Assembly (NCBI GenBank): GCA_902798835.1
Contig: CADBYN010000009.1
Location: 1-37,110 of the forward strand
Direction: 5' to 3'
Origin: Candidatus Avelusimicrobium bubulum
GTDB lineage: Bacteria > Elusimicrobiota > Elusimicrobia > Elusimicrobiales > Elusimicrobiaceae
DNA: 37,110 nucleotides
The notes beneath the pieces are model-generated. The model searched no databases and had not been told where the DNA came from. It saw only the letters and a list, made by a program, of their open reading frames with translations. Both the position numbers and the translations under genes were made by a program. The first letter of the stretch is position 1. Each line of letters begins with the position of its first letter. Positions 17,306 through 33,112 of the stretch are shown piece by piece.

Positions 17306-18079
17306 ATGAAGAAAATGGGAGCGGTACTTATTGCGGGTTGGTTACTCATCGTTGCAAACGCCCAAGCGTACGATCATGTGTACATTGCCCAACGCAATAT
17401 GCCGGCTGTCGTACAAATTAACGTCCTGTCCAACGATGGGAAAACTTCTACCGGGACAGGGTTTATAGTCGACCCTAAAGGGCTTATTGTAACCAATCGT
17501 CACGTCCTTGAACAGTCCCTTTATGCCAACATTACCTTTAATAATGGCATTACATCCGGCGAGGCAATCACGCTAGCACAAGATCCCCTATTAGATATTG
17601 CTCTTATAAAAATTGAAGCAAAAAATCTGCCACATGTTACTTTATCCAATGATGACAATGTGCTAATAGGGCAAACCATTACCGTCATTGGCAACCCGCG
17701 ACGACTTCAAAATACCGTCACTTCGGGTATTATCAGTCAACTACGCAAACAAAAAGACGGAACTGTATGGCACCAAATCAGTGCCCCCATTTCCCCTAGT
17801 TCTAGCGGCAGCCCCGTATTTAATGACAAAGGGGAAGTTGTTTCCGTAGCCTTTGCCAGTATGACCGGAGAAGGAAATCAAAACTTAAATTTCGCTATAC
17901 CTATACGTTATGTACGGGAATTAGCTGAAAAAAATACCATTGCGTTTCCCGAGCCAGCCACAACCGCCCAGGAAAACAGACTAGTAAAACATGTAAAAAA
18001 ATCATGGGAAATTACAAAGCGGTTGTTTCGCCGGTGGTTTACCGGCCAAGAAGTTGAAAAACAGGTAGGAAATAATTAA
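17306..18079 (+). CDS. Exported trypsin-like serine protease (HtrA/S1C-like)
   Basis: A 257-residue protein with a signal peptide (MKKMGAVLIAGWLLIVANAQA) and a chymotrypsin-fold protease domain. The triad is visible: H66 in VTNRHVLEQ, D97 in LLDIALIKIE and S167 in PSSSGSPVFN. The domain is like DegP/HtrA, but there is no PDZ domain; after about residue 215 only a basic tail remains (KRLFRRWF). It probably acts in periplasmic quality control or in processing a specific partner. It is 22 bases upstream of the 657-residue anchored protein and likely shares its transcript, so that protein is a candidate partner or substrate. The start is fixed by the -10 box directly upstream. Confidence 0.88.
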   Translation: MKKMGAVLIAGWLLIVANAQAYDHVYIAQRNMPAVVQINVLSNDGKTSTGTGFIVDPKGLIVTNRHVLEQSLYANITFNNGITSGEAITLAQDPLLDIALIKIEAKNLPHVTLSNDDNVLIGQTITVIGNPRRLQNTVTSGIISQLRKQKDGTVWHQISAPISPSSSGSPVFNDKGEVVSVAFASMTGEGNQNLNFAIPIRYVRELAEKNTIAFPEPATTAQENRLVKHVKKSWEITKRLFRRWFTGQEVEKQVGNN

Positions 18080-18101
18080 ACTATACATATAGGACAAAAT
18101 T

Positions 18102-20075
18102 ATGAAAAAAATTATTTTTAAAACCGGATTCATTCTTTTATGTGTGGGCGTTGTGGTCTTCTTACTTTTGCCTTTTTTGGAAACCACTACACCCGCCCCT
18201 TCAACCTCGAACATGGACCAGGCTCAGGTAGTTACTGAAAACCCTTTAAATGCTATCTCAAAACGTATAGCTTCCTTGTTTGGTTTAAACAAAGAACGCA
18301 AACAAAAAACATTGCCGGGGCAAACCAATGTTGCCGCTAATTCCGCAGATGGAACGACGGAAAACGCCAACAATATTTCTTCCGCTTCTGCGGATTGGAG
18401 AGCATCCGCAAACACTCCCCGTACGTCGGCAACTACCAGAGAGGCACCGAATGCCGCTCAATCACAAACTATCGAAGTGCCTCCTCATAACTCTGCCGCT
18501 GATTATGAAAATGCTTCTTTTCAAACCGACGATGGCGAGTGGGTACTTGTACAACAAACAGCCCCCGAACATAGCGCCCCGGGCATGCACGAAGTAAATG
18601 TGCACGAGAATCCATATGATCAATATGTCCACCAAGAGAGAGCGAGAAGCTTCGGCCCGCAAATGCCCAAGCAAGAAATTCCCGATTCCAAATGGGCGCG
18701 CATTATTCAACCGGTCAAAAACCTCCTGGGTTTTGGCAAATCTTCTGAGGAACCTTCCGTCAGTACTCGTGCGGCGCAACACGCAAATAATGAAAAAGGC
18801 CTTTCCCTGGGGGCCGGATCCGATAAATTGGCTTCTAACAAGGGAAATGAATCTTCCAGTTTTTCGCAAGTACGCTTGCCTACACCTGACATCACCCCTA
18901 TAGAGTGGTCCATGCTGACCCCTAGAGAACAACAGGAATCTGAAAAAAGCGACTCTTCATCTGACAAATCCAATGCGCGCGAGGTTGCAGAAGCGCTTGG
19001 CAATGCCAAATTCCCCAACCCGAAGACACCAAAAGAACGCCAGCAGAGAGAAGATTTTATCAACCAAAAAGAAGCCGAGCTACTACAACGTATGGACGAA
19101 GCACTCTTGCAAGTGCTTACGACAAATTCAAAGAACAGACCGCAGAAGATTGGTGTGGATAATGTGGTAGGTTGTTCGGACGGAGTCCGACAACAAACCG
19201 GATGCCGTAGCAATCTTACTCCAGATAATAGTGATAATCTATCTACTCTAAGCGAGGAGCAAGAGACGCAGAAAGAAAAGGTTTTGGAAAAAGAAAGAGA
19301 CAACAACCGATACAACATCCGCCAAGAAACCGGAACAATACTTGACGACAATTACAGCATTACAGTACTCCTAGGACCTTCTATGGAGGACCTTAACTTT
19401 GATGATCTTAGGCGAAGTGCCCCTGAAGTAGCAGAAAAATATGAATACCTTGCAAAGGCCAAGAACTGCTATGAAGAAAATTGTTATTGGGTACCTAGCT
19501 CCGCCCCCTCGGACCCTACTTTAAAAGATGCGGTTTCTACTGTCGGTCTGCCAAAAGGTGACCCCCTGGGCGTGGAGGAAAAATTAAAACAAGAAGCGAG
19601 TAAAGCGAATAAGAAAATATTGGAAACACCTATCAACTGGATCCCTTATAACGAAAAAGATGTTAAACAACTTAAAGACCGCCCTGAACATGTTCTGCCA
19701 TCAGACTCTGAAGTAGCATTATGGTATGGCCAAAACGTGGGCCTTGAAAACATCTTGGTATCTTCGCTACCATCCCCTTTGTCTTCATCTAGACAAACGA
19801 CGGGATCTTCCAAAACATTCATGAAGAGAAATTTTATAACTCAAGAAGAAGAATTCGCACGACAGCGACAAACACCCCACGAGAAAAGCGTCCTCAAATC
19901 CGGCAACTCCCAGGATAAACAAGAAGAATATAGCGAGAGCAAACAAATGGGAAAGCAGATTGCCAAGTATGTAACTGAAGACATCATCACGCGTAACGAA
20001 ATAAAAAACCAGGTTTTTGAAAACCCTGTACAAGAGGCAACGGAACTGCGGTTAAAAACGATATTGGAAAAATAA
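18102..20075 (+). CDS. Large membrane-anchored, probably disordered protein of unknown function
   Basis: I recognise no family. The 657-residue protein has one N-terminal hydrophobic helix (about residues 4-26) that serves as signal or anchor, followed by a long Ser/Thr/Asn/Gln/Glu/Lys-rich chain of low hydrophobicity. Two close cysteine pairs occur (VGCSDGVRQQTGC and KNCYEENCYW), the second in a more ordered-looking region at about residues 415-470. Charged helical stretches appear near 305-330 and 610-657. It follows the HtrA-like protease by 22 bases and precedes the promoter of the next operon. The codon style matches its neighbours, so it is not obviously foreign. A surface or periplasmic role is likely, specific function unknown. 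Confidence 0.7.
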   Translation: MKKIIFKTGFILLCVGVVVFLLLPFLETTTPAPSTSNMDQAQVVTENPLNAISKRIASLFGLNKERKQKTLPGQTNVAANSADGTTENANNISSASADWRASANTPRTSATTREAPNAAQSQTIEVPPHNSAADYENASFQTDDGEWVLVQQTAPEHSAPGMHEVNVHENPYDQYVHQERARSFGPQMPKQEIPDSKWARIIQPVKNLLGFGKSSEEPSVSTRAAQHANNEKGLSLGAGSDKLASNKGNESSSFSQVRLPTPDITPIEWSMLTPREQQESEKSDSSSDKSNAREVAEALGNAKFPNPKTPKERQQREDFINQKEAELLQRMDEALLQVLTTNSKNRPQKIGVDNVVGCSDGVRQQTGCRSNLTPDNSDNLSTLSEEQETQKEKVLEKERDNNRYNIRQETGTILDDNYSITVLLGPSMEDLNFDDLRRSAPEVAEKYEYLAKAKNCYEENCYWVPSSAPSDPTLKDAVSTVGLPKGDPLGVEEKLKQEASKANKKILETPINWIPYNEKDVKQLKDRPEHVLPSDSEVALWYGQNVGLENILVSSLPSPLSSSRQTTGSSKTFMKRNFITQEEEFARQRQTPHEKSVLKSGNSQDKQEEYSESKQMGKQIAKYVTEDIITRNEIKNQVFENPVQEATELRLKTILEK

Positions 20076-20123: not shown

Positions 20124-20129
20124 TATAAT
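20124..20129 (+). promoter_or_regulatory. TATAAT -10 box of the six-gene envelope operon
   Basis: A perfect TATAAT 21 bases before the ATG at 20151, with an AAAGGAG ribosome site between them. The -35 is weak (TTTATT at 20101-20106, 17-base spacer). Confidence 0.6.
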
Positions 20130-20150: not shown

Positions 20151-20705
20151 ATGACCAAAAAATATGTTGTTTTGGCAACAATTTTGTTGTGTTTGTGCGC
20201 TGCGTGCCGCAAACAGACCGAATATGACCGCAACGACCCCAACCAAGATTACGAACGCTTTATTAATTCCCACGTGTTTGCTGCCTGTGAGGCAGTTGGA
20301 CATCCTTACGCCCGCTACTCGTTAGCCGAGCTTTTGCAACGCCCCAGCGATAATTCTTCTGAATATAAAATTACGTTTGTTAACGGTCCATGCAAAGGGG
20401 TTACCGTGTGGACCTCGGATGTTATTTTGAAAACCAGCCCCGTAGATGATGCCACCCTTATTCCCACGGGCACCGCTGTACTGCGTAATTTTGATAATCC
20501 CAAAGAACCCTACGATAAAGATACTACCGACCACTGGAACGTAGGTGTTGTGATGGGAACTAGCCGCGCCAAACAAGGAATTATTGACCTGGGCTTCCCG
20601 CGCGATCGAAACGATTTTTTCCCTGCACGGGAAAGTGTTTACGCACATAATGTACGTTATATTATTTCCCCCAAGGGTAAAGATGTACGCAAATTCATAA
20701 AGTAA
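20151..20705 (+). CDS. Predicted lipoprotein of unknown function
   Basis: A 184-residue protein with a lipoprotein signal: hydrophobic stretch VVLATILLCLC and lipobox CAAC with the lipidated Cys at about residue 19. The mature part has a possible disulfide pair (AACEAVG and NGPCKGVT) and a beta-rich middle with TVWTSDVILKTSP. I do not recognise the family. It is the first gene of a tight operon that continues to 25121: the next gene starts 11 bases downstream. Clear promoter and ribosome site. Probably anchored in the inner leaflet of the outer membrane, facing the periplasm. Confidence 0.78.
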   Translation: MTKKYVVLATILLCLCAACRKQTEYDRNDPNQDYERFINSHVFAACEAVGHPYARYSLAELLQRPSDNSSEYKITFVNGPCKGVTVWTSDVILKTSPVDDATLIPTGTAVLRNFDNPKEPYDKDTTDHWNVGVVMGTSRAKQGIIDLGFPRDRNDFFPARESVYAHNVRYIISPKGKDVRKFIK

Positions 20706-20716
20706 AAGGAGCTTGT

Positions 20717-21454
20717 ATGAAATTCTCTCGTTTTTTCTCAGTCGTATTTGCCGCTTTGTGTATGGCAGCGCCCGCCTGGGCTGCGGAAGGAGATCCCATC
20801 TCCACTGAAATAACTATCATTGATGTTCCCACCGCAGAGGTATTAGATCGCTATCAAGCGTCTTTTAATACTCGCGTGTATGAACATGGTACTGTTATGG
20901 AAAGTATCGATTTTGGGGTTTATCCGCGTATTAATATTGGAGTCAGCGTGGCGATTGACAATTGGATAGGTTCTTCCCACACCGTAAAAGTATTAAATCC
21001 CGAATTTCAAGCCAAATGGAAAGTATATGACGGCAGTTTGTACTTGCCCGCTATTGCTATCGGATACGATGGCCGCCGTTATGGTTACGGATACAATCCG
21101 GAAACACGCGAGTATATCCGTTCCAAACGTTATTTGGACAATCGAAAAGGCGGGTATGTAACTTTAACACGCGAAATTTTTGTTCCTAACCTTACGCTAA
21201 ACGGTGGGGTCAACTTCTCGGATTTTGACTGGAATGAAATCTATATGTTTACCGGTTTGTATTACAAAATTATTCCGCAAATTACATTGTTAAGTGAATG
21301 GGATAATATCCGTAATATGCGCGACTCACGCTTGAACTTAGGGGCTCGCTTCTACTTGCACCCCTCGTTGGCTTTGGATGCTTCTTTCCGCCGGGTTGGC
21401 CGCGGAGATGAAAACGAACGCATCCTGCAGTTGCGTTATGTTACTACGTTTTGA
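20717..21454 (+). CDS. Predicted outer-membrane beta-barrel protein
   Basis: A 245-residue protein with a signal peptide (FFSVVFAALCMAAPAWA) followed by alternating, aromatic-rich strands such as SIDFGVYPRINIGVSVAI and LRYVTTF. It ends in Phe, as most outer-membrane barrel proteins do. The length suits a barrel of about 10-12 strands. Pieces resemble YjbH-type or general porin-like families, but I cannot assign one. It lies between the lipoprotein and the HAMP-only protein with gaps of 11 and 8 bases. Possible roles are a small-molecule pore or part of an envelope complex encoded by this operon. Confidence 0.72.
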   Translation: MKFSRFFSVVFAALCMAAPAWAAEGDPISTEITIIDVPTAEVLDRYQASFNTRVYEHGTVMESIDFGVYPRINIGVSVAIDNWIGSSHTVKVLNPEFQAKWKVYDGSLYLPAIAIGYDGRRYGYGYNPETREYIRSKRYLDNRKGGYVTLTREIFVPNLTLNGGVNFSDFDWNEIYMFTGLYYKIIPQITLLSEWDNIRNMRDSRLNLGARFYLHPSLALDASFRRVGRGDENERILQLRYVTTF

Positions 21455-21462
21455 GGAAAATT

Positions 21463-21909
21463 ATGGATAACAAAGCCATCAAATCAGGTTTTCAACGTCG
21501 CACAATTTTTATTAAAAGAAATCTGCAGATTCGTTATATGATTTTGATGGTAGCTTGTGTACTGTGCGGCCTGGCCATCATGGGTTTGGAACTGACAGCC
21601 ACACTCAATGATCTGTTTGATGACTACCCTGTTTTAGTACAACCCATTTATGATGAATTCATCCCCATTGTTGCCAGTTTCTTTTATAAAATTTCCATTT
21701 ACGTATTACTGGTGATAATCATTTCCGCTATTGTATCCCACCGAATGGCCGGCCCCGTATATCGTTTCGAACAAACCTGCAAACAAATTGCAAAGGGAGA
21801 TTTTTCGCAGCGGGTACATTTGCGTAAAGGGGATCAACTAACTGAACTACAGCAAGAATTTAACACCATGATGGACGAAATAGAAAAGCGCTTGAACGAA
21901 AAATCTTAA
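21463..21909 (+). CDS. HAMP-only membrane protein
   Basis: About 148 residues from the ATG at 21463, which has a GAGGAAA site; an upstream TTG at 21451 is unlikely. Two membrane helices (about residues 28-48 and 80-102) frame a periplasmic segment of roughly 30 residues. Then comes a HAMP domain with the marker PVYRFEQTCKQIAKGDFSQR and a closing coiled coil (ELQQEFNTMMDEIEKRL). HAMP domains pass signals from membrane sensors to kinases, cyclases or chemoreceptor tips, but no such output domain is present. The protein ends after the helix and is not a frameshifted longer gene, since the next gene starts 5 bases later in normal form. It may signal by protein contact. Function unknown. Confidence 0.82.
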   Translation: MDNKAIKSGFQRRTIFIKRNLQIRYMILMVACVLCGLAIMGLELTATLNDLFDDYPVLVQPIYDEFIPIVASFFYKISIYVLLVIIISAIVSHRMAGPVYRFEQTCKQIAKGDFSQRVHLRKGDQLTELQQEFNTMMDEIEKRLNEKS

Positions 21910-21914
21910 AACTT

Positions 21915-23204
21915 ATGAAAAAACAACTTTTAATGATAGGATGCTTATTGGGTGCACTTAGCGTTGCCGCACAAAGCAATTATGGTGTGGAATTTTCCAG
22001 TTTGCTTAGCGATAACCTCTCGTTGGAAAGTGCTATTCGTTTGGGCCTTGAAAACAACTCCGATTTTTTATCCGCCAAGGAAGAAATTACCGTTGCTGAG
22101 CAAAAGGTAAGTGAGGCGAAATTTCGCTATTTGCCCCAATTTGCCTTGCAAGGCACAGCAACCTGGTACGAAGCAGACTCCCCCATGGTGCTCCCGGAAC
22201 CGGGAATCAACCGTTTCTTGCCGGACACAAAATCGCTTGACGCCAAACATTTTTACGGCGTAGGTGTAACGGCCACGCAGTATATCTATTCCGGTGGCCG
22301 CATTAACGGATCCCTGAAGATTGCACGAGCTAATTTAAAACAGGCCCAAAGCCGCTACGAAACCGTTAAAAACGCCGTCGTGTTGGAGATCAAAAAATCC
22401 TTTGCCAATTTGCTTTATGCACAAGAAAATGTCGCTTTCACACAAAAACTTTATGAACAAGTGAAAAATTGGCGCTACTCGTCAGGCCCGTGGACGCGCA
22501 TACGACAAAAAGCAATTGTGGCCCAGATAAAAGCCCGCTACCAGGAAGCCCAAAGCGAGCTCAATCGCGCCAAACTAGCAATGTTAGTTAGTTTAAACAA
22601 GGAATTAAATTCCCCCCTTACGGTTTCAGGGAGCTTAGAGCCGGTATCCACTCAGGGAGATTTACCCCATTTCCAATTATGGGCTACCGAATTTCGCCCG
22701 GAGTTAAAATCTGCCATTTATGCATTGGAACTTGATAACATCGCCATTGATTTGGCCCTTTCTAAACGCTATCCGGACATTTTATTAAATGCTTCTTACG
22801 AGCGTGTAGGCGATTCCGACTTGGATGACGAAAACAAACAAGTATCGCTAGCCGTGCGCTTGCCCATTCCGTATACTTTCTCGCAACAAGTCAATCAAAA
22901 GAAAGCAGAGCAGCGCAAAAGCACGTTACACAGAAGCGCCATCGAAGACAAAATTCACGTTCAAGTAGCTACCAGTTTTGAGCAAATGATCTTTTGGCAG
23001 CAAGAAGTTTTGGACCGTCAAGCCATTTACCAAGAATTGACTTCCTTACTAGATCGTAACGCTAAGAATGCACCCCTGGATGATCTGGTCTCCTTGGAAG
23101 CTCGCCGGGAATATCTCCAAATGGGGCAATCCTATTTAGAAGCCTTGCGCGAAAATCACATTGCCAAAGCTCAGTTGGAATGGGCTATCGGCAAGGACTT
23201 ATAA
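21915..23204 (+). CDS. TolC-family outer-membrane efflux protein
   Basis: A 429-residue protein with a signal peptide (MKKQLLMIGCLLGALSVAAQ) and the outer membrane efflux layout of two homologous halves of long helices and short strands. Recognisable pieces are LSLESAIRLGLENNSDFLSAKEE at the start, TATQYIYSGGRINGSLKIARANLKQ in the first half and SLAVRLPIP in the second. TolC-type proteins form a trimeric tunnel through the outer membrane, fed by an inner-membrane pump and adaptor. Neither is encoded in this window, so the partner is unknown. The gene is 5 bases after the HAMP gene and overlaps the patatin gene by 1 base (TAATG). Confidence 0.88.
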   Translation: MKKQLLMIGCLLGALSVAAQSNYGVEFSSLLSDNLSLESAIRLGLENNSDFLSAKEEITVAEQKVSEAKFRYLPQFALQGTATWYEADSPMVLPEPGINRFLPDTKSLDAKHFYGVGVTATQYIYSGGRINGSLKIARANLKQAQSRYETVKNAVVLEIKKSFANLLYAQENVAFTQKLYEQVKNWRYSSGPWTRIRQKAIVAQIKARYQEAQSELNRAKLAMLVSLNKELNSPLTVSGSLEPVSTQGDLPHFQLWATEFRPELKSAIYALELDNIAIDLALSKRYPDILLNASYERVGDSDLDDENKQVSLAVRLPIPYTFSQQVNQKKAEQRKSTLHRSAIEDKIHVQVATSFEQMIFWQQEVLDRQAIYQELTSLLDRNAKNAPLDDLVSLEARREYLQMGQSYLEALRENHIAKAQLEWAIGKDL

Positions 23205-24157
23205 TGAAGTCCGTGCGCTTCTTTCTTCTGTTACTGAGCGGACTGCTATGTCTGCCGACCCAGGCCTTAACTCCTCCCTCCGATGATGCAATTTTACGTG
23301 AATTTATGTGGCAACGTTTTGTGGCTTTGCCCAAAAACGAACGGCCCCAGATCGGTTTGGCACTTTCGGCCGGAGGGGTGCGTGGTTTTGCCCACGTTGG
23401 AGTATTGGAAGTGCTTGATAATGCCCAAGTGCCGATTGACTACTTAGCCGGAACTTCTATGGGATCAGTAGTGGGAGGCTTCTACGCCGCAGGCTTATCT
23501 ACGGATAAATTGTGGGAATTGGGCAACCACATCAAACTCAATACCATTACTCCTGATTGGAATGCGGCGGGATTGTTTCGTTTTCTGTTCGCACGCAAAT
23601 TACCAACTTCGGCCAATTTATCTAAATTCTTTGAACAACAACTAGGCGATATGCAATTTGAAGACATGCCTATTCCGTTTTCATGTTCGGCCATGGACGT
23701 AAAAACGGGGGAGCGCGTAGTATTTAACTCGGGTCCCTTGGCTATTGCCGTACGTGCTAGCATGAATTTACCGGGGGTGTTCGAACCGGTGGAATACCGG
23801 CACCGTTCTTTGGTAGACGGAGCCGTGGTCGATTATTTACCCGTTGAATCAGTAGAACAAATGGGAGCTGATTACATTATTGCTTCCGTCACACCGCTCG
23901 ATTTTTCCTCCAAAACCCCTACCAGCATTTTGGGGTACGTCAACCGCGTCAATGATGTACGCGCGGCAGCTATGATTGAGGAATCCGCCCGCAAAGCGAA
24001 CTTTGTACTCACTAACCGAGTGCTAGATACAGGAACGTTGGAATTAAAGAAACTTCATCAGGCCGGAGAAGTAGGTGTTAAAGAAACTTATTCTAATTTA
24101 GGAGCGCTGCAAGAAGATATCTTGCTTCATGCATTGCCTTATGTATTTAAAAAGTAA
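23204..24157 (+). CDS. Exported patatin-like phospholipase
   Basis: A patatin-fold serine lipase, 317 residues. I start it at the ATG of a TAATG overlap with the TolC gene (23204), which gives a clean signal peptide (SVRFFLLLLSGLLCLPTQA); the ATG at 23180 would add eight residues before it. The oxyanion loop is SAGGVRG (56-61), the nucleophile is S85 in GTSMGS, and the catalytic aspartate is D205 in VDGAVVDYLP, so the Ser-Asp dyad is complete. Unlike PlpD-type (type Vd) proteins it has no POTRA or barrel part. It would hydrolyse phospholipid acyl chains in the periplasm or outer membrane. The neighbours suggest an envelope-remodelling or secretion role, which is inference. Confidence 0.9.
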   Translation: MKSVRFFLLLLSGLLCLPTQALTPPSDDAILREFMWQRFVALPKNERPQIGLALSAGGVRGFAHVGVLEVLDNAQVPIDYLAGTSMGSVVGGFYAAGLSTDKLWELGNHIKLNTITPDWNAAGLFRFLFARKLPTSANLSKFFEQQLGDMQFEDMPIPFSCSAMDVKTGERVVFNSGPLAIAVRASMNLPGVFEPVEYRHRSLVDGAVVDYLPVESVEQMGADYIIASVTPLDFSSKTPTSILGYVNRVNDVRAAAMIEESARKANFVLTNRVLDTGTLELKKLHQAGEVGVKETYSNLGALQEDILLHALPYVFKK

Positions 24158-25121
24158 ATACGTTTTCATCATGATACTTTGTTTCTTGTTTGTAGAAGGA
24201 TGCAGCTCGCTCCAAAATGGGTTTTTGGGCATAGCTCCTTTTGGGGATAAGCAAGAGTATGTACGTGCTCGCAATCTATATAATGAACAAAAGTATGAAG
24301 AAGCTGTGAACGAATTAACCCGTTATATTTACAAAGCTGGGAACGTCAATCGTCGGGAAGCCCGCGCCTATCGCTTATTAGGTATGAGCTATGAACAACT
24401 CAACCAATTGGGCAAAGCCTTGGAGACATATTTGGAGGCACTCGAATTTCACCCCAATAATGTCCCGTTGTTAATAGCAGCTGCCGCGCTCTACCAACGA
24501 ACCGAACTCATTGATAAATCCCAGGCCCTTTATCAACGGGCTCTAGAACAAGAACCGAACAATTTACAAGCCTTGGCCGGGCAAGCTGAAAATTACCGCG
24601 CTTTCGGGTTCTTCTCACAAGCCCGCAATTATTATGATAAATTTTTTAAACTAAATCCAAGTGCTTCCCCACAATACCGCGCAAAATATGCTTCTACATT
24701 TTTAAATCAGGGAAATTTCGAACAGGCCTTCATTCATATCACTATGGCTTTGTCGGAAGATGCTTACCAACCTGATTATTGGCTTATTAGCGCTAAGGCC
24801 TCTTTTGGGTTGGGGCGCTATAATGATGCCTTAAACGCAATCGATACTGCCTTGGATTTAGCTCCGGATCGTACCGATCTGCAACTTTACAAAATTATTG
24901 GTCTTTACCAAACCCAGCATTATAAAGACTCAGCCCGCTGGGCACGTCAATTTATCCAAAAAAACCCTGACAATCAACTTGGCTGGTTACTGCTGGCTCT
25001 TAACGAGTGGAAATTAAATCAACGCACCTCAGCGCGAACACATCTACAAAAAGCAACAGCCTTTGAAGAAAACTCTTTTACCGGGCAAGTAGCTTCTAAA
25101 TTATTACAAGAATGGAAATAA
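24141..25121 (+). CDS. TPR-repeat lipoprotein
   Basis: A 326-residue protein with a lipoprotein signal (MILCFLFVEGC, lipidated Cys at about 21) and roughly seven tetratricopeptide repeats, for example QKYEEAVNELTRYI, GKALETYLEALEFHPNN and GRYNDALNAIDTALDLAPDR. TPR lipoproteins act as scaffolds for complexes at the outer membrane; BamD and PilF are known types, but neither is clearly matched here. The start is uncertain: ATG 24129 adds four residues. Either way the gene overlaps the patatin gene, so the two are coupled. It is the last gene of the operon, followed directly by a terminator. Confidence 0.85.
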   Translation: MYLKSKYVFIMILCFLFVEGCSSLQNGFLGIAPFGDKQEYVRARNLYNEQKYEEAVNELTRYIYKAGNVNRREARAYRLLGMSYEQLNQLGKALETYLEALEFHPNNVPLLIAAAALYQRTELIDKSQALYQRALEQEPNNLQALAGQAENYRAFGFFSQARNYYDKFFKLNPSASPQYRAKYASTFLNQGNFEQAFIHITMALSEDAYQPDYWLISAKASFGLGRYNDALNAIDTALDLAPDRTDLQLYKIIGLYQTQHYKDSARWARQFIQKNPDNQLGWLLLALNEWKLNQRTSARTHLQKATAFEENSFTGQVASKLLQEWK

Positions 25122-25147
25122 AAAGACCGCCCTAAAGGCGATCTTTT
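25121..25147. terminator. Bidirectional terminator between TPR gene and TldE-like gene
   Basis: AAAAGA-C-CGCC pairs with GGCG-A-TCTTTT around a 5-base loop with one internal mismatch. It closes both converging operons. Confidence 0.82.
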
Positions 25148-25153
25148 AAATGA

Positions 25154-26833
25154 TTATGGTTTGGAAACAAATGGTTTCTTGTCTGGTTTTTTATCAGTAG
25201 GAACAAATTCCAGCTCATCTATTAGCAATGCCGGCGAAGACACACTTTGTTTAGGCAGTCCGTTGGAAGACGGCTCCGTCTGCCTCCATAAAACTTTGGC
25301 TTGATTCCCTGCCGCGGTAATATCACGCAAGGCGCGTGTAGTCAAATTAGCCAAACGCAAACCGTACACGGTTTCACGCTTGTTTCCAGTAGTATAAACA
25401 CGTACCGCACGCGACACAATGCCATCATCGCTTGCAGGGAAATCATACAATATGTATCCGTAGTCTAACCCTAATTCACGACAGCGGCTCAATAGTCTCT
25501 CTTCCAATTCCCGGTCTGATAACGCAACTTGTGGCTCCACCAGCACATTGGTCAGCCGCTCACGCGGAAAAGATTGAGGGGCAAAACGCGCATGTCCGTT
25601 ACTGGAAAGCTTAGCACCAAACGGACGGCTGGTACGCGGCAACTGCTGCAAACGCCCAGCTTCTACCAAAGTCAATTTTTGTGCTGCTGCTCCTTCATCA
25701 TCTACCGGCATAAAACCACCTAAAGGGATATTTTCCACAGAGCCAGGGACCGAACGCACTTGTGGGTTATCATAGACAGTTATCCCAGGCGCCATAACCC
25801 GTTGGCCCGGGGTGCGCATCTTGCCGGCAGTTATATCTACTTCACTACGACTAGAGAGTAAGGGATTTAGATTTTGTAGATTTTCAACTAGTAAATTATG
25901 TATAAACTGTCCGGCCGCTTGCGGGCGCAATAACACCGGTCCCAAATAAGGCGCAGGCTTTACAGCTTGCTGAAGTGGCTCGAGTTCTTTTAGAAATTGC
26001 GCAGTCTGCTGGGTTAGTTTTTCATAAGCATCTTTCCCCAAAGAGGACCACCAAAATTCATTCTCATAATCTTGCTTATACCCACTTGTATTACGAAACT
26101 TAGCAAAGAGACGTACTCGTACCGCCGGTTGGGAAACCTGATAAAATCCGCCTAAATTATTAAGATAATAGGTGTCGCGCTGACGGGGTTCAATGCGCAC
26201 CGAAAACTGTTCCAGAAACGGATACGCCTTCCCCATAGCCGATAATTGTTTTACCCATTTTTGCAATTGCTCAATATCATACTTCTCAACAGGTTGAATT
26301 TCCTCTACATAATGGGCTTGTTTAGAAGGCATAAAATCAGGAAGTTTTGTTTCATTTTCTTCTTGCTTAGTACGCTTATAAGCTTCTTTTTGCTGATAAA
26401 GTTCCGCTGCAAACAAATAGCTCTCGTCTGTCATTTTCCATAAAGCTTGGCGAATGCCATCATAACTTTTGGCAATATTGTTGTAATATTCCGGAGCATA
26501 AGCATACCGAGGCGAATAGGAATCGTGTTTATAACCCAAACTATCGTTCTTGTTTGTGCCGATAGAAATCATCACGCTGCCATTCAATTTATCATCGCGT
26601 TGCGAAACGGGGTACAATTCCCCCAGAGAAGCTTCCACCGACGAAGCCGCACGCAAATTTTCCAACTTATAAACTATAAATAACGGCGCGGGCACCCCTT
26701 GCCGATGAAGTTTTTTGACAGTGCGGGACATTTCATCTCTCATGGCCTTAAAATACATATTATCCGGCAAAGCGGCGCTTTGTGCGAGTCCACACATTCC
26801 TAAAAAACAAAAAAGCAAACTGAGTTTTTTCAT
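25154..26833 (-). CDS. Exported TldD/TldE-family protein without the zinc motif
   Basis: A 559-residue protein with a signal peptide (MKKLSLLFCFLGMCGLAQSA) and overall similarity of layout to the upstream TldD-like protein. The zinc motif HExxxH of TldD is replaced: at the aligned place the sequence reads FIHNLLVENL, with H312 kept, the Glu turned to Asn (313) and the second His to Glu (317). The conserved Cys near the C-terminus is also absent. This is the state of TldE (PmbA), the inactive partner in the TldD-TldE protease. The two genes are one base apart, so a secreted heterodimer is likely. The C-terminal tail is rich in Lys and Pro. Substrate unknown. Ribosome site GGGGAGGG. Confidence 0.8.
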   Translation of the reverse strand: MKKLSLLFCFLGMCGLAQSAALPDNMYFKAMRDEMSRTVKKLHRQGVPAPLFIVYKLENLRAASSVEASLGELYPVSQRDDKLNGSVMISIGTNKNDSLGYKHDSYSPRYAYAPEYYNNIAKSYDGIRQALWKMTDESYLFAAELYQQKEAYKRTKQEENETKLPDFMPSKQAHYVEEIQPVEKYDIEQLQKWVKQLSAMGKAYPFLEQFSVRIEPRQRDTYYLNNLGGFYQVSQPAVRVRLFAKFRNTSGYKQDYENEFWWSSLGKDAYEKLTQQTAQFLKELEPLQQAVKPAPYLGPVLLRPQAAGQFIHNLLVENLQNLNPLLSSRSEVDITAGKMRTPGQRVMAPGITVYDNPQVRSVPGSVENIPLGGFMPVDDEGAAAQKLTLVEAGRLQQLPRTSRPFGAKLSSNGHARFAPQSFPRERLTNVLVEPQVALSDRELEERLLSRCRELGLDYGYILYDFPASDDGIVSRAVRVYTTGNKRETVYGLRLANLTTRALRDITAAGNQAKVLWRQTEPSSNGLPKQSVSSPALLIDELEFVPTDKKPDKKPFVSKP

Positions 26834-26834
26834 T

Positions 26835-28523
26835 TTATTTACCCTCCCCGAACGGTGGCGGCAAAAGCGGAGGCTTTGTATTGGATTTGCCTGTCTTTTC
26901 GATTTCTAATCTGCGCAATAATACGCTAGGCGCAATGCTGGAAACAGGAACCCACCCGGACTCTGCACCGCAACTGCCGTTAAAAACATCATAATCATCC
27001 GCTACCGCCATCACTTCGTGAAAAGCAGCCAATGGGGTCCCCACAATGTCCGCTCCGCGCACTACTTCTCTGCGACCATCCGGATAAACCCGGTACACTA
27101 GGGTAGGTGTCAATTTGAAAGTTTGCGGATAACTGGTATCCGTCATTGTAAAACCACCCGATAAATCTTCAATAATAAACCCATAGGGTTTTTGTTGGCG
27201 TTTGATTTCTTCTAAGAATTGTTGCTCCAATGCTTCATATGAAACAGTTTTAGAAGCAATTACCCGCGTATTCCCCATACGGGCCACGGGGCGCTTGCCC
27301 ATATCGCCGCGGCCGTGACCGTTGGAAACAGAAAATCCTTTAATAGGACTAGAACTCATCAAGAATCCTTTTAAGATGCCGTTTTCCACCAACGTAACCG
27401 GGCGTGCTTTTACTCCCTCGTCATCATATAAGTAAAATCCACGCAACGGTTGCCCGTTAAATTCTGCCAACGTGGCATCATCCACGATGCTAAGCAACGG
27501 AGAAGTCACCTCTTGCCCTACTTTATCGGTGAAAGTTTTCCCAAACGAATCTTCTTTTTGGCGATGCCCCTCCACACGGTGCCCTAACACTTCATGCACA
27601 AAAACGGCCATAGCCTTGTTTTTGAGCAATACCGGCACAGCCACAGGATCAGCTTCGGGAGCATTTAACAACGCCTCCAATTCCTGCAAACTTTGCTTGA
27701 TGTCGGCCGTTAATTTCGCTTCATCCGGCAATTGTTCCTGCGTCAATACGTCATAATTTTGAGAACGATCTGCCCACGCTCCGTCAGCTGTTTTCCCCCA
27801 TAACGAATAAGACAGGCGAGCTAAACGTACCGGGGTTTTTAGTTGCGTACCTATCGAATCGGCAAAATAGCGACTTCCGCTTTGTACTTCAAAAGAAAAT
27901 GAACTTCCTAGCACAAATGGTTTCCCGCGTGTCAAATTAGAAACTTTTAACAAAAGTTCCTTGATTTGTTCCATATCAAATGTCAATGAAGGGGACTCTT
28001 GACAAAAAATTTCTTTGGGCGGAAACACAAAATCCGGGGAATCATCTAATCGTTTCGCCCCTGTTTGTGAATCAGCACGGACACGGTTAAAATCCTGTTG
28101 GGCATCTTCGGCGGCTTGTTCCGTCAAACGCCACACCGCTGCCGAAAAAGCCTTCCCGTCTTCCCCAATGGCGGGCATATCTGCTATTTCTAAAGAACGA
28201 TACGTATTCCCCGTTTTCAATGTGCGGGTATTATCCATTTGCAAACTTCCGGCGCGTACTTGCACTTGCAACATAGCATCATGCCGCTTGGTATGATTGG
28301 TAACCCCTTTTTCTTCTACATCTATACCATATACATCTAAATCATCAAAGTTATAAGCCACATAGTAAATGGGCGGATTTTGTTTCTTGAACGTTTTCAT
28401 GCTGCGGTTAATTTCTTTGGACATTAACTGCAGCGGCCGTTGGTCTTGTACGCGGCATATTGTCTGAGCAAAGACCGGAAAGGCGAATACCAATAATACG
28501 CAAAGTAGTAGGAGTCTTTTCAT
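26835..28523 (-). CDS. Exported TldD-like metallopeptidase
   Basis: A 562-residue protein with a signal peptide (MKRLLLLCVLLVFAFPVFAQ). The zinc site is FVHEVLGHRVEGH, with HExxxH at H310, E311 and H315, and the third ligand is probably C518 in GSCGAESGWVPV, matching the C-terminal GMCGK region of TldD. DSFGKTFTDKVGQEV and YDDEGVKARPVTLVENG are also TldD-like. TldD cuts unfolded peptides inside a closed TldD-TldE cavity in the cytoplasm of E. coli, where it matures microcin B17; here both partners have export signals. It heads a two-gene operon. The ATG at 28523 lies 7 bases after an extended -10 box, with no ribosome site, so it is probably leaderless. It is divergent from the tRNA gene. Confidence 0.88.
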   Translation of the reverse strand: MKRLLLLCVLLVFAFPVFAQTICRVQDQRPLQLMSKEINRSMKTFKKQNPPIYYVAYNFDDLDVYGIDVEEKGVTNHTKRHDAMLQVQVRAGSLQMDNTRTLKTGNTYRSLEIADMPAIGEDGKAFSAAVWRLTEQAAEDAQQDFNRVRADSQTGAKRLDDSPDFVFPPKEIFCQESPSLTFDMEQIKELLLKVSNLTRGKPFVLGSSFSFEVQSGSRYFADSIGTQLKTPVRLARLSYSLWGKTADGAWADRSQNYDVLTQEQLPDEAKLTADIKQSLQELEALLNAPEADPVAVPVLLKNKAMAVFVHEVLGHRVEGHRQKEDSFGKTFTDKVGQEVTSPLLSIVDDATLAEFNGQPLRGFYLYDDEGVKARPVTLVENGILKGFLMSSSPIKGFSVSNGHGRGDMGKRPVARMGNTRVIASKTVSYEALEQQFLEEIKRQQKPYGFIIEDLSGGFTMTDTSYPQTFKLTPTLVYRVYPDGRREVVRGADIVGTPLAAFHEVMAVADDYDVFNGSCGAESGWVPVSSIAPSVLLRRLEIEKTGKSNTKPPLLPPPFGEGK

Positions 28524-30739: not shown

Positions 30740-33112
30740 ATGACAATTTTAAAGCGGTCCTTGGCTTTGGTTTTGGGCTTGTTATTTGCTTTTTTTTCGT
30801 ACGCGCGCGCGGAAGAACCTGCTGCCGAATTAGACCCAAATGGGCCTTGGATGATCTGTAACATTTCGGTGGACGGGCTTCAAAATATCCGCAAAAAGAC
30901 GGTTACCAAAGCCGCTCATTCCAAAAAAGGCGAACTGTATGAACGGATGAGTGTGTCGGAAGATATTCAAGATATCTCCGCCTTGGGCAGCTTTGATTCT
31001 GTAGAAATTGATATTTCCCCCATGCCTGGTACTCGTAAAGAAAAAGAAACCGGCACGGCTTACAACTGCCACCGCATCACATATTTAGTGAAAGAAAAGC
31101 CTATTTTTGACCGTATTACCTATCAAGGACGTAAACATTTGGGAAAAGGCGCCATCACTCAGGCCATGACGCTAAAAATTAAGGATCCCTTCAATGAAGC
31201 AAAATTACAAAGTGATCTGCCTCGTATTACCGCTAAATACGCCGAAAAAGGCTACGTCAATGCCCAAGTGGCTTATGAGCTTGAACGTAATGAAAAATTG
31301 GGCGTGGTATATGTAAAATTAATCATTGATGAAGGCGAACGCGTGCGTGTGGCGGCACTTAACCTAGATACACATGGGGAACAAACCGAACTTCCTTTGG
31401 AGAAAATTGCCAAAAAAGCTTCTAACCGTCCGCATAAGGTTTTTAAACCGCAAAATCTACAAAAAGATTGGATAAAAATGATGCTTTACGGCCGCAACAA
31501 AGGATACAGCGAATTTAACTTGTCTCAGCCGCAAATCGCCTACAATGATGAGAAAACCGAAGCCACCCTGACGTATGAATTAACCGAAGGACCGCAAGTT
31601 GACTTTGGTACTGTAAGCTTTGAGGGAAATAGTGTTTTTACCCAACAAGAGTTAGACAAACAAATTTATTTTCGTACCGGGAAACGTTATAATCAGAAAG
31701 ATTTTGACGATACTATCTCCGCTATCCAAGAACAATACGCCGATCGCGGCTACTTACAAGCGCAGGTTGTTCCTGTTAAAGACATCCAAAATGGCTTGTT
31801 AAATATTACCTTCGATATTACCGAAGGGCATACATTTTACATTGATCACGTGGATGTAACCGGCTACGAACATACCAAAAAGTATGTCTTTACACGCGAA
31901 ATAACTATCCACCCCGGTGATTTGTACGATAATGCTAAAATTAAACGCAGCCAAACCAAAATTATGAATTTAGGGTTTATTAACGACGTACAAATTGGCC
32001 TGCAACCTACGGCGGATCCCAATAAAGTCGACCTCGATTTTAACGTCCAGGAAGGACGCCCCGGCATGTTTACGGCCGGTTTGGCTATGAGCTCTATGGA
32101 TGGGTTGTACGGAGAAGTATCTCTTAACCATCTCAACCTCTTTGGCCGCGCTCAACGCCTTTCTCTGCGCACCTTATTCGGAAAAGAAATTTTGGACTAT
32201 ACTGTCAGTTGGTATACGCCATGGATTTTTGATAAACCTACTTCCCTGGGGATCGATGCCTTCAACACACGCCGTTACCGTTCATTCGCCACTGAAAACC
32301 AAGCCTACACCGAAAAACGTATCGGCGGACGCTTAAAAGTAGGGCCGCGTTTCAATGATGACATTTATCAGCTCTCTTTCGGGTATTCCTTCGAACACAT
32401 CAACATCTACGATATTGATGCCAAATATCAATGCACCCCGGGGAAAAGTTATGAAGAGTGTATTGAGAAAGGAAAAACAAATCTTTCTACAATCAGTACA
32501 GATTTTGCCATCGATACCCGCGACAATATGTGGGATCCCACACGCGGATGGAGAAACTCTATCGGATTGGCATTGGCCGGCGGTCCCGTCGGCGGAGACC
32601 TTGACCTGTGGTACTTAAATGCCCGCTCTATCTTCAACTACACCGTACTTAACGTAGGCGGCAATTATCCTATCGTATTTGTTTTATCAAACAAAATCGG
32701 TTCCGTACGCCCTTATGGCCGCACAGACGAAGTTCCTCCGTTTGAGAAATTCTTCCTGGGAGGGGCAGATACCATCCGCGGATATGAACGTGCCGGAGAA
32801 ATCGGCCCCAAATACGGTGGGACAACTTACTACGTAATGAATGCGGAATTACGCTTCCCCTTGGCACGCGAGGGCCGGCGTAACATGGCGCAATTCGCCT
32901 TCTTCTTTGACTTGGGTAACTCTTGGAACCGCTTTGATGATTTGGAATTTTCCATGGGCCCGGATGAAAATCAATTCAAGGCCGGTGTAGGGGTGGGCTT
33001 ACGCTTAACGACCCCGTCCTTACCTATCCGCATTGACTGGGGGTATGGCCTCAATCACCGTTCGGGCGAAGATCGATCCCATTTCTACTTCAACATCTCC
33101 AACATGATGTAA
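30740..33112 (+). CDS. bamA: Outer membrane protein assembly factor BamA
   Basis: BamA inserts beta-barrel proteins into the outer membrane. The 790-residue protein has a signal peptide (MTILKRSLALVLGLLFAFFSYARA), about five POTRA domains (first from about residue 36, ICNISVDGLQNIRKKTV; later ones with GTVSFEGNSVFTQQEL and FYIDHVDVTGYEHTKKYV) and a C-terminal 16-strand barrel. The lid-loop motif appears in FFLGGADTIRGYERAGEIGP (VRGF/Y-type RGY). The last residues are HFYFNISNMM: aromatic alternation is kept but the final residue is Met rather than Phe or Trp. It leads the operon with skp and the lpx genes, the order of Gram-negative envelope loci. Confidence 0.95.
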   Translation: MTILKRSLALVLGLLFAFFSYARAEEPAAELDPNGPWMICNISVDGLQNIRKKTVTKAAHSKKGELYERMSVSEDIQDISALGSFDSVEIDISPMPGTRKEKETGTAYNCHRITYLVKEKPIFDRITYQGRKHLGKGAITQAMTLKIKDPFNEAKLQSDLPRITAKYAEKGYVNAQVAYELERNEKLGVVYVKLIIDEGERVRVAALNLDTHGEQTELPLEKIAKKASNRPHKVFKPQNLQKDWIKMMLYGRNKGYSEFNLSQPQIAYNDEKTEATLTYELTEGPQVDFGTVSFEGNSVFTQQELDKQIYFRTGKRYNQKDFDDTISAIQEQYADRGYLQAQVVPVKDIQNGLLNITFDITEGHTFYIDHVDVTGYEHTKKYVFTREITIHPGDLYDNAKIKRSQTKIMNLGFINDVQIGLQPTADPNKVDLDFNVQEGRPGMFTAGLAMSSMDGLYGEVSLNHLNLFGRAQRLSLRTLFGKEILDYTVSWYTPWIFDKPTSLGIDAFNTRRYRSFATENQAYTEKRIGGRLKVGPRFNDDIYQLSFGYSFEHINIYDIDAKYQCTPGKSYEECIEKGKTNLSTISTDFAIDTRDNMWDPTRGWRNSIGLALAGGPVGGDLDLWYLNARSIFNYTVLNVGGNYPIVFVLSNKIGSVRPYGRTDEVPPFEKFFLGGADTIRGYERAGEIGPKYGGTTYYVMNAELRFPLAREGRRNMAQFAFFFDLGNSWNRFDDLEFSMGPDENQFKAGVGVGLRLTTPSLPIRIDWGYGLNHRSGEDRSHFYFNISNMM

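What the first reader, a model, noticed from the sequence alone, without database searches (positions are those of the whole stretch)
20151..25121. Unexplained six-gene envelope operon: lipoprotein, barrel, HAMP-only, TolC, patatin, TPR lipoprotein
The genes are coupled (gaps of 11, 8 and 5 bases, then 1- and 17-base overlaps) between one promoter and one terminator. They place proteins in the inner membrane, periplasm and outer membrane, including a phospholipase with a full catalytic dyad. No pump, adaptor or regulator is included. This is the best candidate in the window for an undescribed system, perhaps for lipid remodelling or export.
Basis: partly seen in the sequence, partly recalled or inferred. 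Interest (0 to 1): 0.58.

Follow-up and report, generated by a model that had tools for sequence, protein, structure and literature searches.

The report
TolC-patatin-TPR envelope cassette of Elusimicrobiota
The six envelope genes are real and kept in order in close relatives, and inside them lies a three-gene unit (an outer-membrane channel, a phospholipase and a repeat protein) kept together across most of a bacterial phylum, perhaps to manage outer-membrane lipids.

Summary
In detail: six ORFs, with gaps 11, 8 and 5 and overlaps 1 and 17, in an Elusimicrobiaceae-like genome. Of 40 loci from named records, 30 carry all six genes in order; the other 10 are cut but keep the order.

Across the phylum the set splits by age. 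A was seen only in the window's family. B is a near-universal Elusimicrobiota outer-membrane protein (270 of 294 genomes). C belongs to a HAMP-only family with several genomic homes. D-E-F (TolC-like, patatin, TPR) is the persistent unit: D and E adjoin in 40 of 46 genomes, and the unit occurs in two settings, after B-pfk-C or after argGH.

E is a stand-alone relative of the PlpD patatin domain, with the Ser-Asp dyad invariant in 27 of 27. D is the only one of four OEPs in this genome without a pump beside it. PldA was found in 0 and MlaA in 1 of 24 genomes.

Best reading: a periplasmic phospholipase cassette for outer-membrane lipid homeostasis, working somewhat like PlpD or MlaYZ but built differently. 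The gene unit is shown; the function is inferred.

The parts
20124..20129 (+). possible -10 element (TATAAT) ahead of A
   Evidence: sequence; not found by the promoter scan
20151..20705 (+). A: small lipoprotein, no family; weak tandem Tudor/Agenet-like fold; seen only in the window's family f1, in the window's genus and three of five other genera sampled
   Evidence: lipobox-like Cys in 33 of 34 relatives
20717..21454 (+). B: outer-membrane beta-barrel, phylum-wide, nearly always one match per genome; distant YjbH-like signal
   Evidence: 270 of 294 genomes; alignment A6 ending in F; PF06082 in 7 of 27 members at E <= 1, best E 5.9e-4
21463..21909 (+). C: inner-membrane HAMP-only protein, two spans plus HAMP, no output domain
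21915..23204 (+). D: TolC-like outer-membrane protein without a pump or adaptor beside it
   Evidence: PF02321 116.5 bits; TolC structures matched by profile, E 1.6e-10
23204..24157 (+). E: patatin-like phospholipase with signal-peptide-like N-terminus, PlpD type, dyad Ser85/Asp205
   Evidence: PF01734 109.7 bits; PlpD 5fqu E 1.4e-34 single, 2.3e-71 profile; dyad invariant in 27 of 27
24141..25121 (+). F: TPR (lipo)protein
   Evidence: lipobox-like Cys in 18 of 36 near relatives
25121..25147 (.). 12-pair hairpin, possible terminator between F and the convergent tldE
   Evidence: listed on the - strand
17306..20075 (+). upstream context: trypsin-like protein (17306-18079) and fast-evolving 657-aa protein (18102-20075); both found with A in 32 of 40 loci from named records

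Best explanation
The operon is a lineage-specific assembly around an old Elusimicrobiota cassette, D-E-F. E is exported to the periplasm and hydrolyses phospholipids at the outer membrane through a Ser-Asp dyad. D, a TolC-like protein with no pump of its own, is its outer-membrane partner: an anchor, or a path for lipids or lysolipids. F, a TPR protein, scaffolds or regulates the pair. In part of the window's class a HAMP-only inner-membrane protein (C) came to precede D, perhaps to signal envelope state. In part of this family the barrel B became directly contiguous with C, and the lipoprotein A was gained. Shown here: gene content, conservation, catalytic residues, kinship to PlpD, lack of an adjacent pump, and rarity of PldA and MlaA. 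Inferred: periplasmic location, contact between D, E and F, phospholipid substrate, the roles of C and F, and the order of events.
For: D and E are same-strand neighbours in 40 of 46 genomes that I chose to cover 27 of the 28 family labels seen, and in 25 of those 27 families. In 55 loci selected for having D and E, F follows E in 50, and two more hold a TPR ORF there. The upstream flank differs (C in 30 of 55, argH or argG in 23 of 55) while D-E-F stays. E at E <= 1e-50 is in 184 of 198 genomes of at least 90% completeness. E is close to the PlpD patatin domain; PlpD's patatin lies in the periplasm and its loss raises phospholipids (PMC11116518, passages). MlaYZ pairs an OM protein with a phospholipase (PMC12569750, PMC11131202, passages). 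PLA1 is in 0 of 24 genomes and MlaA in 1 of 24; both control searches found E. coli. MlaD is in 22 of 24. D is the one OEP of four in this genome with no adaptor or pump beside it.
Against: No function was tested. Conserved order here also includes arg, lys and dap genes that are surely not part of a lipid system, so neighbourhood alone is weak. G001, G030 and G053 lack an E orthologue by my reading and G238 has only a more distant, lipoprotein-like patatin with no D or F beside it; these four also lack PldA and MlaA but keep MlaD, so the cassette is dispensable. G086 has MlaA together with D-E-F and no MlaD match, so a simple replacement is not shown. G008 has D apart from E-F. On plasmids E-like proteins matched 130 records and D one; that record is not among the 60 E records listed, so no pair was seen there.
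Confidence: 0.45

Rival explanations
1. D is simply a general-purpose TolC used by pumps encoded elsewhere, and E and F are unrelated envelope genes that share its transcript.
For: TolC of E. coli also serves distant pumps (recalled). D is a clear OEP, and gene order in this phylum also keeps arg, lys and dap genes together.
Against: The three other OEPs of this genome each have their own adaptor and pump. D-E-F stays together while the upstream flank changes. The D profile scores its own copy above the other OEPs of the same genome, by a wide margin here (579 against 45 bits) and a smaller one in distant families (265 against 166 in G004).
Confidence: 0.25
2. E is secreted through D to the outside as an effector or nutrient-scavenging lipase.
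For: E has a signal-peptide-like N-terminus and neighbours an OM channel.
Against: No ABC or adaptor for type I secretion is adjacent; a Sec-exported patatin passing a TolC has no precedent known to me. The PlpD patatin, once thought secreted, was found in the periplasm (PMC11116518, passages).
Confidence: 0.08
3. The genes are only co-ordered by common descent; there is no functional unit beyond each gene's own role.
For: In near relatives even greA and the tldDE region are co-ordered in many loci; elsewhere B and C have other neighbours.
Against: D-E neighbours recur in 25 of 27 families sampled and D-E-F in two genomic settings; in L035 the block lies inverted relative to greA yet intact.
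Confidence: 0.22

Closest known systems
PlpD / PL-Omp85 phospholipases (Pseudomonas aeruginosa, Fusobacterium FplA)
   Same: Same patatin type with Ser-Asp dyad, exported, linked to an outer-membrane barrel; PlpD affects phospholipid levels (PMC11116518, passages seen).
   Different: E has no POTRA and no Omp85 barrel; its conserved outer-membrane neighbour is a TolC-like protein, with a TPR protein in the same unit.
MlaYZ of Pseudomonas aeruginosa
   Same: An outer-membrane protein plus a lipase proposed to remove misplaced phospholipids (PMC12569750, PMC11131202, passages; the primary paper PMC10374164 was not held).
   Different: MlaZ is MlaA-family; D is TolC-like. MlaY was not compared by sequence.
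mlaEFD-tolC-tamB operon of Veillonella and other Negativicutes
   Same: A TolC homologue encoded with phospholipid trafficking genes in a diderm lacking MlaA and PldA (PMC10665443, passages).
   Different: There the TolC adjoins the MCE transporter; here the MCE genes of the genome lie on other contigs and a phospholipase adjoins instead.
Tripartite efflux pumps and type I secretion (TolC family)
   Same: D has the OEP domain.
   Different: No adaptor and no energised inner-membrane pump beside D.
HAMP-only receptors such as Af1503
   Same: Membrane spans and a HAMP without output domain (Af1503 recalled; papers seen only in a listing).
   Different: C is a separate, partly multi-copy Elusimicrobiota family; not compared by sequence with Af1503.

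Membership tests
PL-Omp85 (PlpD) | patatin domain with Ser-Asp dyad | tested here: met
PL-Omp85 (PlpD) | C-terminal POTRA and Omp85 barrel in the same chain | tested here: not met
   317 aa, only Patatin matched; the one Omp85 match of the genome is the POTRA-bearing protein at 30740-33112
PL-Omp85 (PlpD) | periplasmic location of the patatin | not testable with these tools
   signal-peptide-like N-terminus by eye only
Tripartite efflux / type I secretion | OEP domain | tested here: met
Tripartite efflux / type I secretion | adjacent HlyD-type adaptor and RND or ABC pump | tested here: not met
   none in the operon; none recognised by eye among the D-E-F neighbours; present beside the three other OEPs
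Mla pathway | MlaA, MlaC or MlaEFD encoded in the unit | tested here: not met
   no such domain in the operon; the genome's MCE genes lie on other contigs
MlaYZ | MlaA-family outer-membrane partner | tested here: not met
   no MlaA match in this genome
RssA (NF007623) | score over the curated cut-off of 272 bits | tested here: not met
   101.2 bits
YjbH (PF06082), for B | match to the family model | tested here: inconclusive
   7 of 27 B proteins match at E <= 1, best E 5.9e-4; the window protein does not
HAMP-only receptor, for C | membrane spans plus HAMP and no output domain | tested here: met

The most novel reading that the evidence does not exclude
Elusimicrobiota keep a near phylum-wide outer-membrane lipid quality-control machine of a new build: a PlpD-type phospholipase in the periplasm working with a dedicated, pump-free TolC-like channel and a TPR protein, in a phylum that has MlaD, often long, but hardly any MlaA and no detected PldA. 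In part of the window's class it is coupled to a HAMP-only transmembrane sensor.
Probability: 0.3. Interest if true: 0.7.

Novelty: new variant of a known kind. Interest (0 to 1): 0.5.

Why it matters
How diderm phyla without PldA and MlaA remove or recycle misplaced phospholipids is open. A core cassette pairing a PlpD-type phospholipase with an orphan TolC-like protein would give TolC-family proteins a role outside efflux and secretion, and would name candidate genes in a phylum that has cultured members (Elusimicrobium minutum, Endomicrobium proavitum; both appear in the listing). It also corrects the unit: three genes are the core, and three are later or independent neighbours.

Tried and rejected
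Foldseek against the PDB gave no hit at E <= 0.001: mostly barrels for B, with some unrelated proteins; tandem Tudor/Agenet folds and unrelated proteins for A. So no D-E or E-F co-model was possible.

A profile search of solved structures gave one meaningless hit for B (E 0.2).

A secretion reading and a drug-pump reading of D were considered and set low (see rivals). A tie of B to Mla was considered because in G023, an Endomicrobium-like genome by its neighbours and size, B lies downstream of mla-radA-aroC-aroK genes (L181; names other than MlaD by eye); not followed further.

C was tested as a marker of the system; its other copies have mixed neighbours by eye, so it is not specific.

G238 seemed at first to lack E; one search shows a 338-aa frame there, and its neighbourhood holds no D or F, so it was not counted as a pair.

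Outside the phylum only plasmid records were tried: E matched 130 of 72,556, D one. Chromosomes of other phyla could not be searched with what was left.

Literature: no paper held Elusimicrobi, patatin and TolC together; two held Elusimicrobi and patatin, judged unrelated from the listing; one held Elusimicrobiota, outer membrane and phospholipase (listing only); a search for patatin with efflux-protein and TPR terms showed nothing relevant in the ten titles and abstract starts listed. PMC10434189 passages showed patatin and TolC only in separate lines of gene lists. PMC4104836 has no mention of Elusimicrobi.

Full report
What is there. The six ORFs and their spacing are as described. Families: C HAMP, D OEP, E Patatin, F TPR, A and B none. 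The window is contig 9 of a 1.35-Mb, 65-contig genome. Its 40 matching loci in the species collection come from records titled Elusimicrobia, Elusimicrobiales, Elusimicrobiaceae, Elusimicrobium or Avelusimicrobium, or simply uncultured bacterium (four); several titles name rumen, colon or rectum samples. Two of the 40 (L021, L041) are from one MAG.

Near relatives. tblastn of window proteins on the 40 loci shows the same order. 30 of 40 hold A-F in order; the remaining 10 hold part of the set, in order, and are cut by an end of the locus. F of L025 is counted present, though its open frame is only 106 aa. The trypsin-like and 657-aa genes are found with A in 32 of 40. In L035 the block lies inverted relative to greA. 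Shared descent alone could explain part of this.

Phylum level, B. A profile of B finds it in 270 of 294 genomes, once in all listed rows but one (G202, twice). I read 60 B loci chosen over families: 27 carry B, C, D, E and F, 6 of them with A; L044, L114 and L119 hold the first part and end at a contig end; L050 has C but no D, E or F beside it; 29 have B without C-F. A was seen only in family f1: in g2, g3 and g4 as well as the window's genus, not in the single loci of g5 and g6. Phosphofructokinase lies between B and C in 24 loci, directly after B in 20 (identity of one by Pfam); it is missing there in the window and in g2 and g3. Elsewhere B is followed by accA in many loci (one confirmed), with fba or pfk nearby, and often preceded by a HEAT-repeat protein (one confirmed), by eye.

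Phylum level, D-E-F. Searches with E and D profiles in 46 genomes, chosen by me over 27 of 28 family labels, show D and E as same-strand neighbours in 40. G008 has them apart; G238 has a more distant patatin without D; G001, G030, G039 and G053 have no E orthologue by my reading. Two settings appear in 55 loci selected for carrying D and E: C adjoins D in 30 (f1, f2, f7, f8, f10, f13), and argH or argG precedes D in 23 (f3, f6, f9, f11 of the window's class, and the families outside it); L151 and L153 show neither. Typically lysA, dapF and dapA follow F in the second setting, dapF and dapA in much of the first. F follows E in 50 of 55, fails in L136 (the best F hit lies elsewhere, but a weaker F-like ORF follows E), and was not detected in four: L142 and L145 hold a TPR ORF there, L044 is cut, L151 shows none. 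E at E <= 1e-50 is in 184 of 198 genomes of at least 90% completeness; at 1e-90 I count 177, so a few of the 184 may be paralogues. The 14 misses cluster: family f22 (4), genus g8 (2) and genus g55 (5).

The enzyme. In 27 E sequences from across the phylum the nucleophile Ser85 and Asp205 are invariant. The profile matches the PlpD patatin structure 5fqu at 2.3e-71, far better than VipD, ExoU and CBASS phospholipases (1.1e-11 and weaker). Passages of PMC11116518 report that the PlpD patatin is periplasmic and that loss of PlpD raises phospholipids. E lacks the POTRA and barrel, so it is not a PL-Omp85 member.

The channel. This genome has four OEP proteins (my count of its nine matches, one of which falls inside an adaptor ORF). 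Three lie beside pumps: OEP-HlyD-ABC-MacB, OEP-HlyD-RND, and HlyD-RND followed by an OEP. D does not.

Lipid context. MlaD is found in 22 of 24 genomes; 18 of 25 matches lie in open frames of 428-510 aa, 7 in frames of 273-322. PLA1 is in 0 of 24; its control rang in E. coli and Methanocaldococcus, over the cut-off in one. MlaA is in 1 of 24, G086, which shows no MlaD match; its control rang in E. coli and Caulobacter. Results against a simple replacement: G086 has MlaA and D-E-F; G001, G030, G053 and G238 lack D-E, PldA and MlaA.

C and A. C belongs to a family of HAMP-only proteins; its profile matches 24 of 32 genomes at 1e-10, some matches being long HAMP proteins, and G002 has four short ones. 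Elsewhere C copies have mixed neighbours by eye. A is conserved in near relatives, with a weak tandem Tudor/Agenet-like fold.

Conclusion. The finding is real, but its unit should be redrawn: D-E-F is the old cassette, C joins it in part of the class, B is an independent core outer-membrane protein drawn in, A a family novelty. Outer-membrane phospholipid homeostasis is the best-supported role, by homology and context only.

Noticed in passing
25154-28523 (-): Two adjacent PmbA/TldD-type proteins have signal-peptide-like N-termini, unusual for a family known as cytoplasmic (recalled); found downstream of the operon in many relatives.
   Followed up: no
18102-20075: A 657-aa protein with a hydrophobic N-terminus, no family, evolving much faster than its neighbours (pN/pS 0.58-0.64); L042 of G034 holds two related ORFs.
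   Followed up: partly
L159-L178: HAMP-only proteins of the C family recur across Elusimicrobiota, several in some genomes, many ending in FKI or FRI; in L168, L172 and L175 they sit between panC-like and nadB-like genes by eye.
   Followed up: partly
L055:1346-3364, L057:267-2336: A second patatin of about 680 aa with a cyclic-nucleotide-binding domain near dnaE in families f7 and f8.
   Followed up: partly
L179-L182: MCE (mla) clusters encode a long MlaD (424-440 aa) after an alr-like gene; in L181 the cluster lies a few genes upstream of B (MlaD of L179 confirmed).
   Followed up: partly
L183:4042-7255: This genome has a second MCE set with an MlaE permease and a following lipoprotein-like ORF.
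   Followed up: no
L025, F gene at about 7370: F homology spans 320 residues but the open frame stops after 106 aa: a broken gene or an assembly error.
   Followed up: no
L184:7114-8031 (-): G238 has a lipoprotein-like patatin with no TolC or TPR gene beside it.
   Followed up: partly
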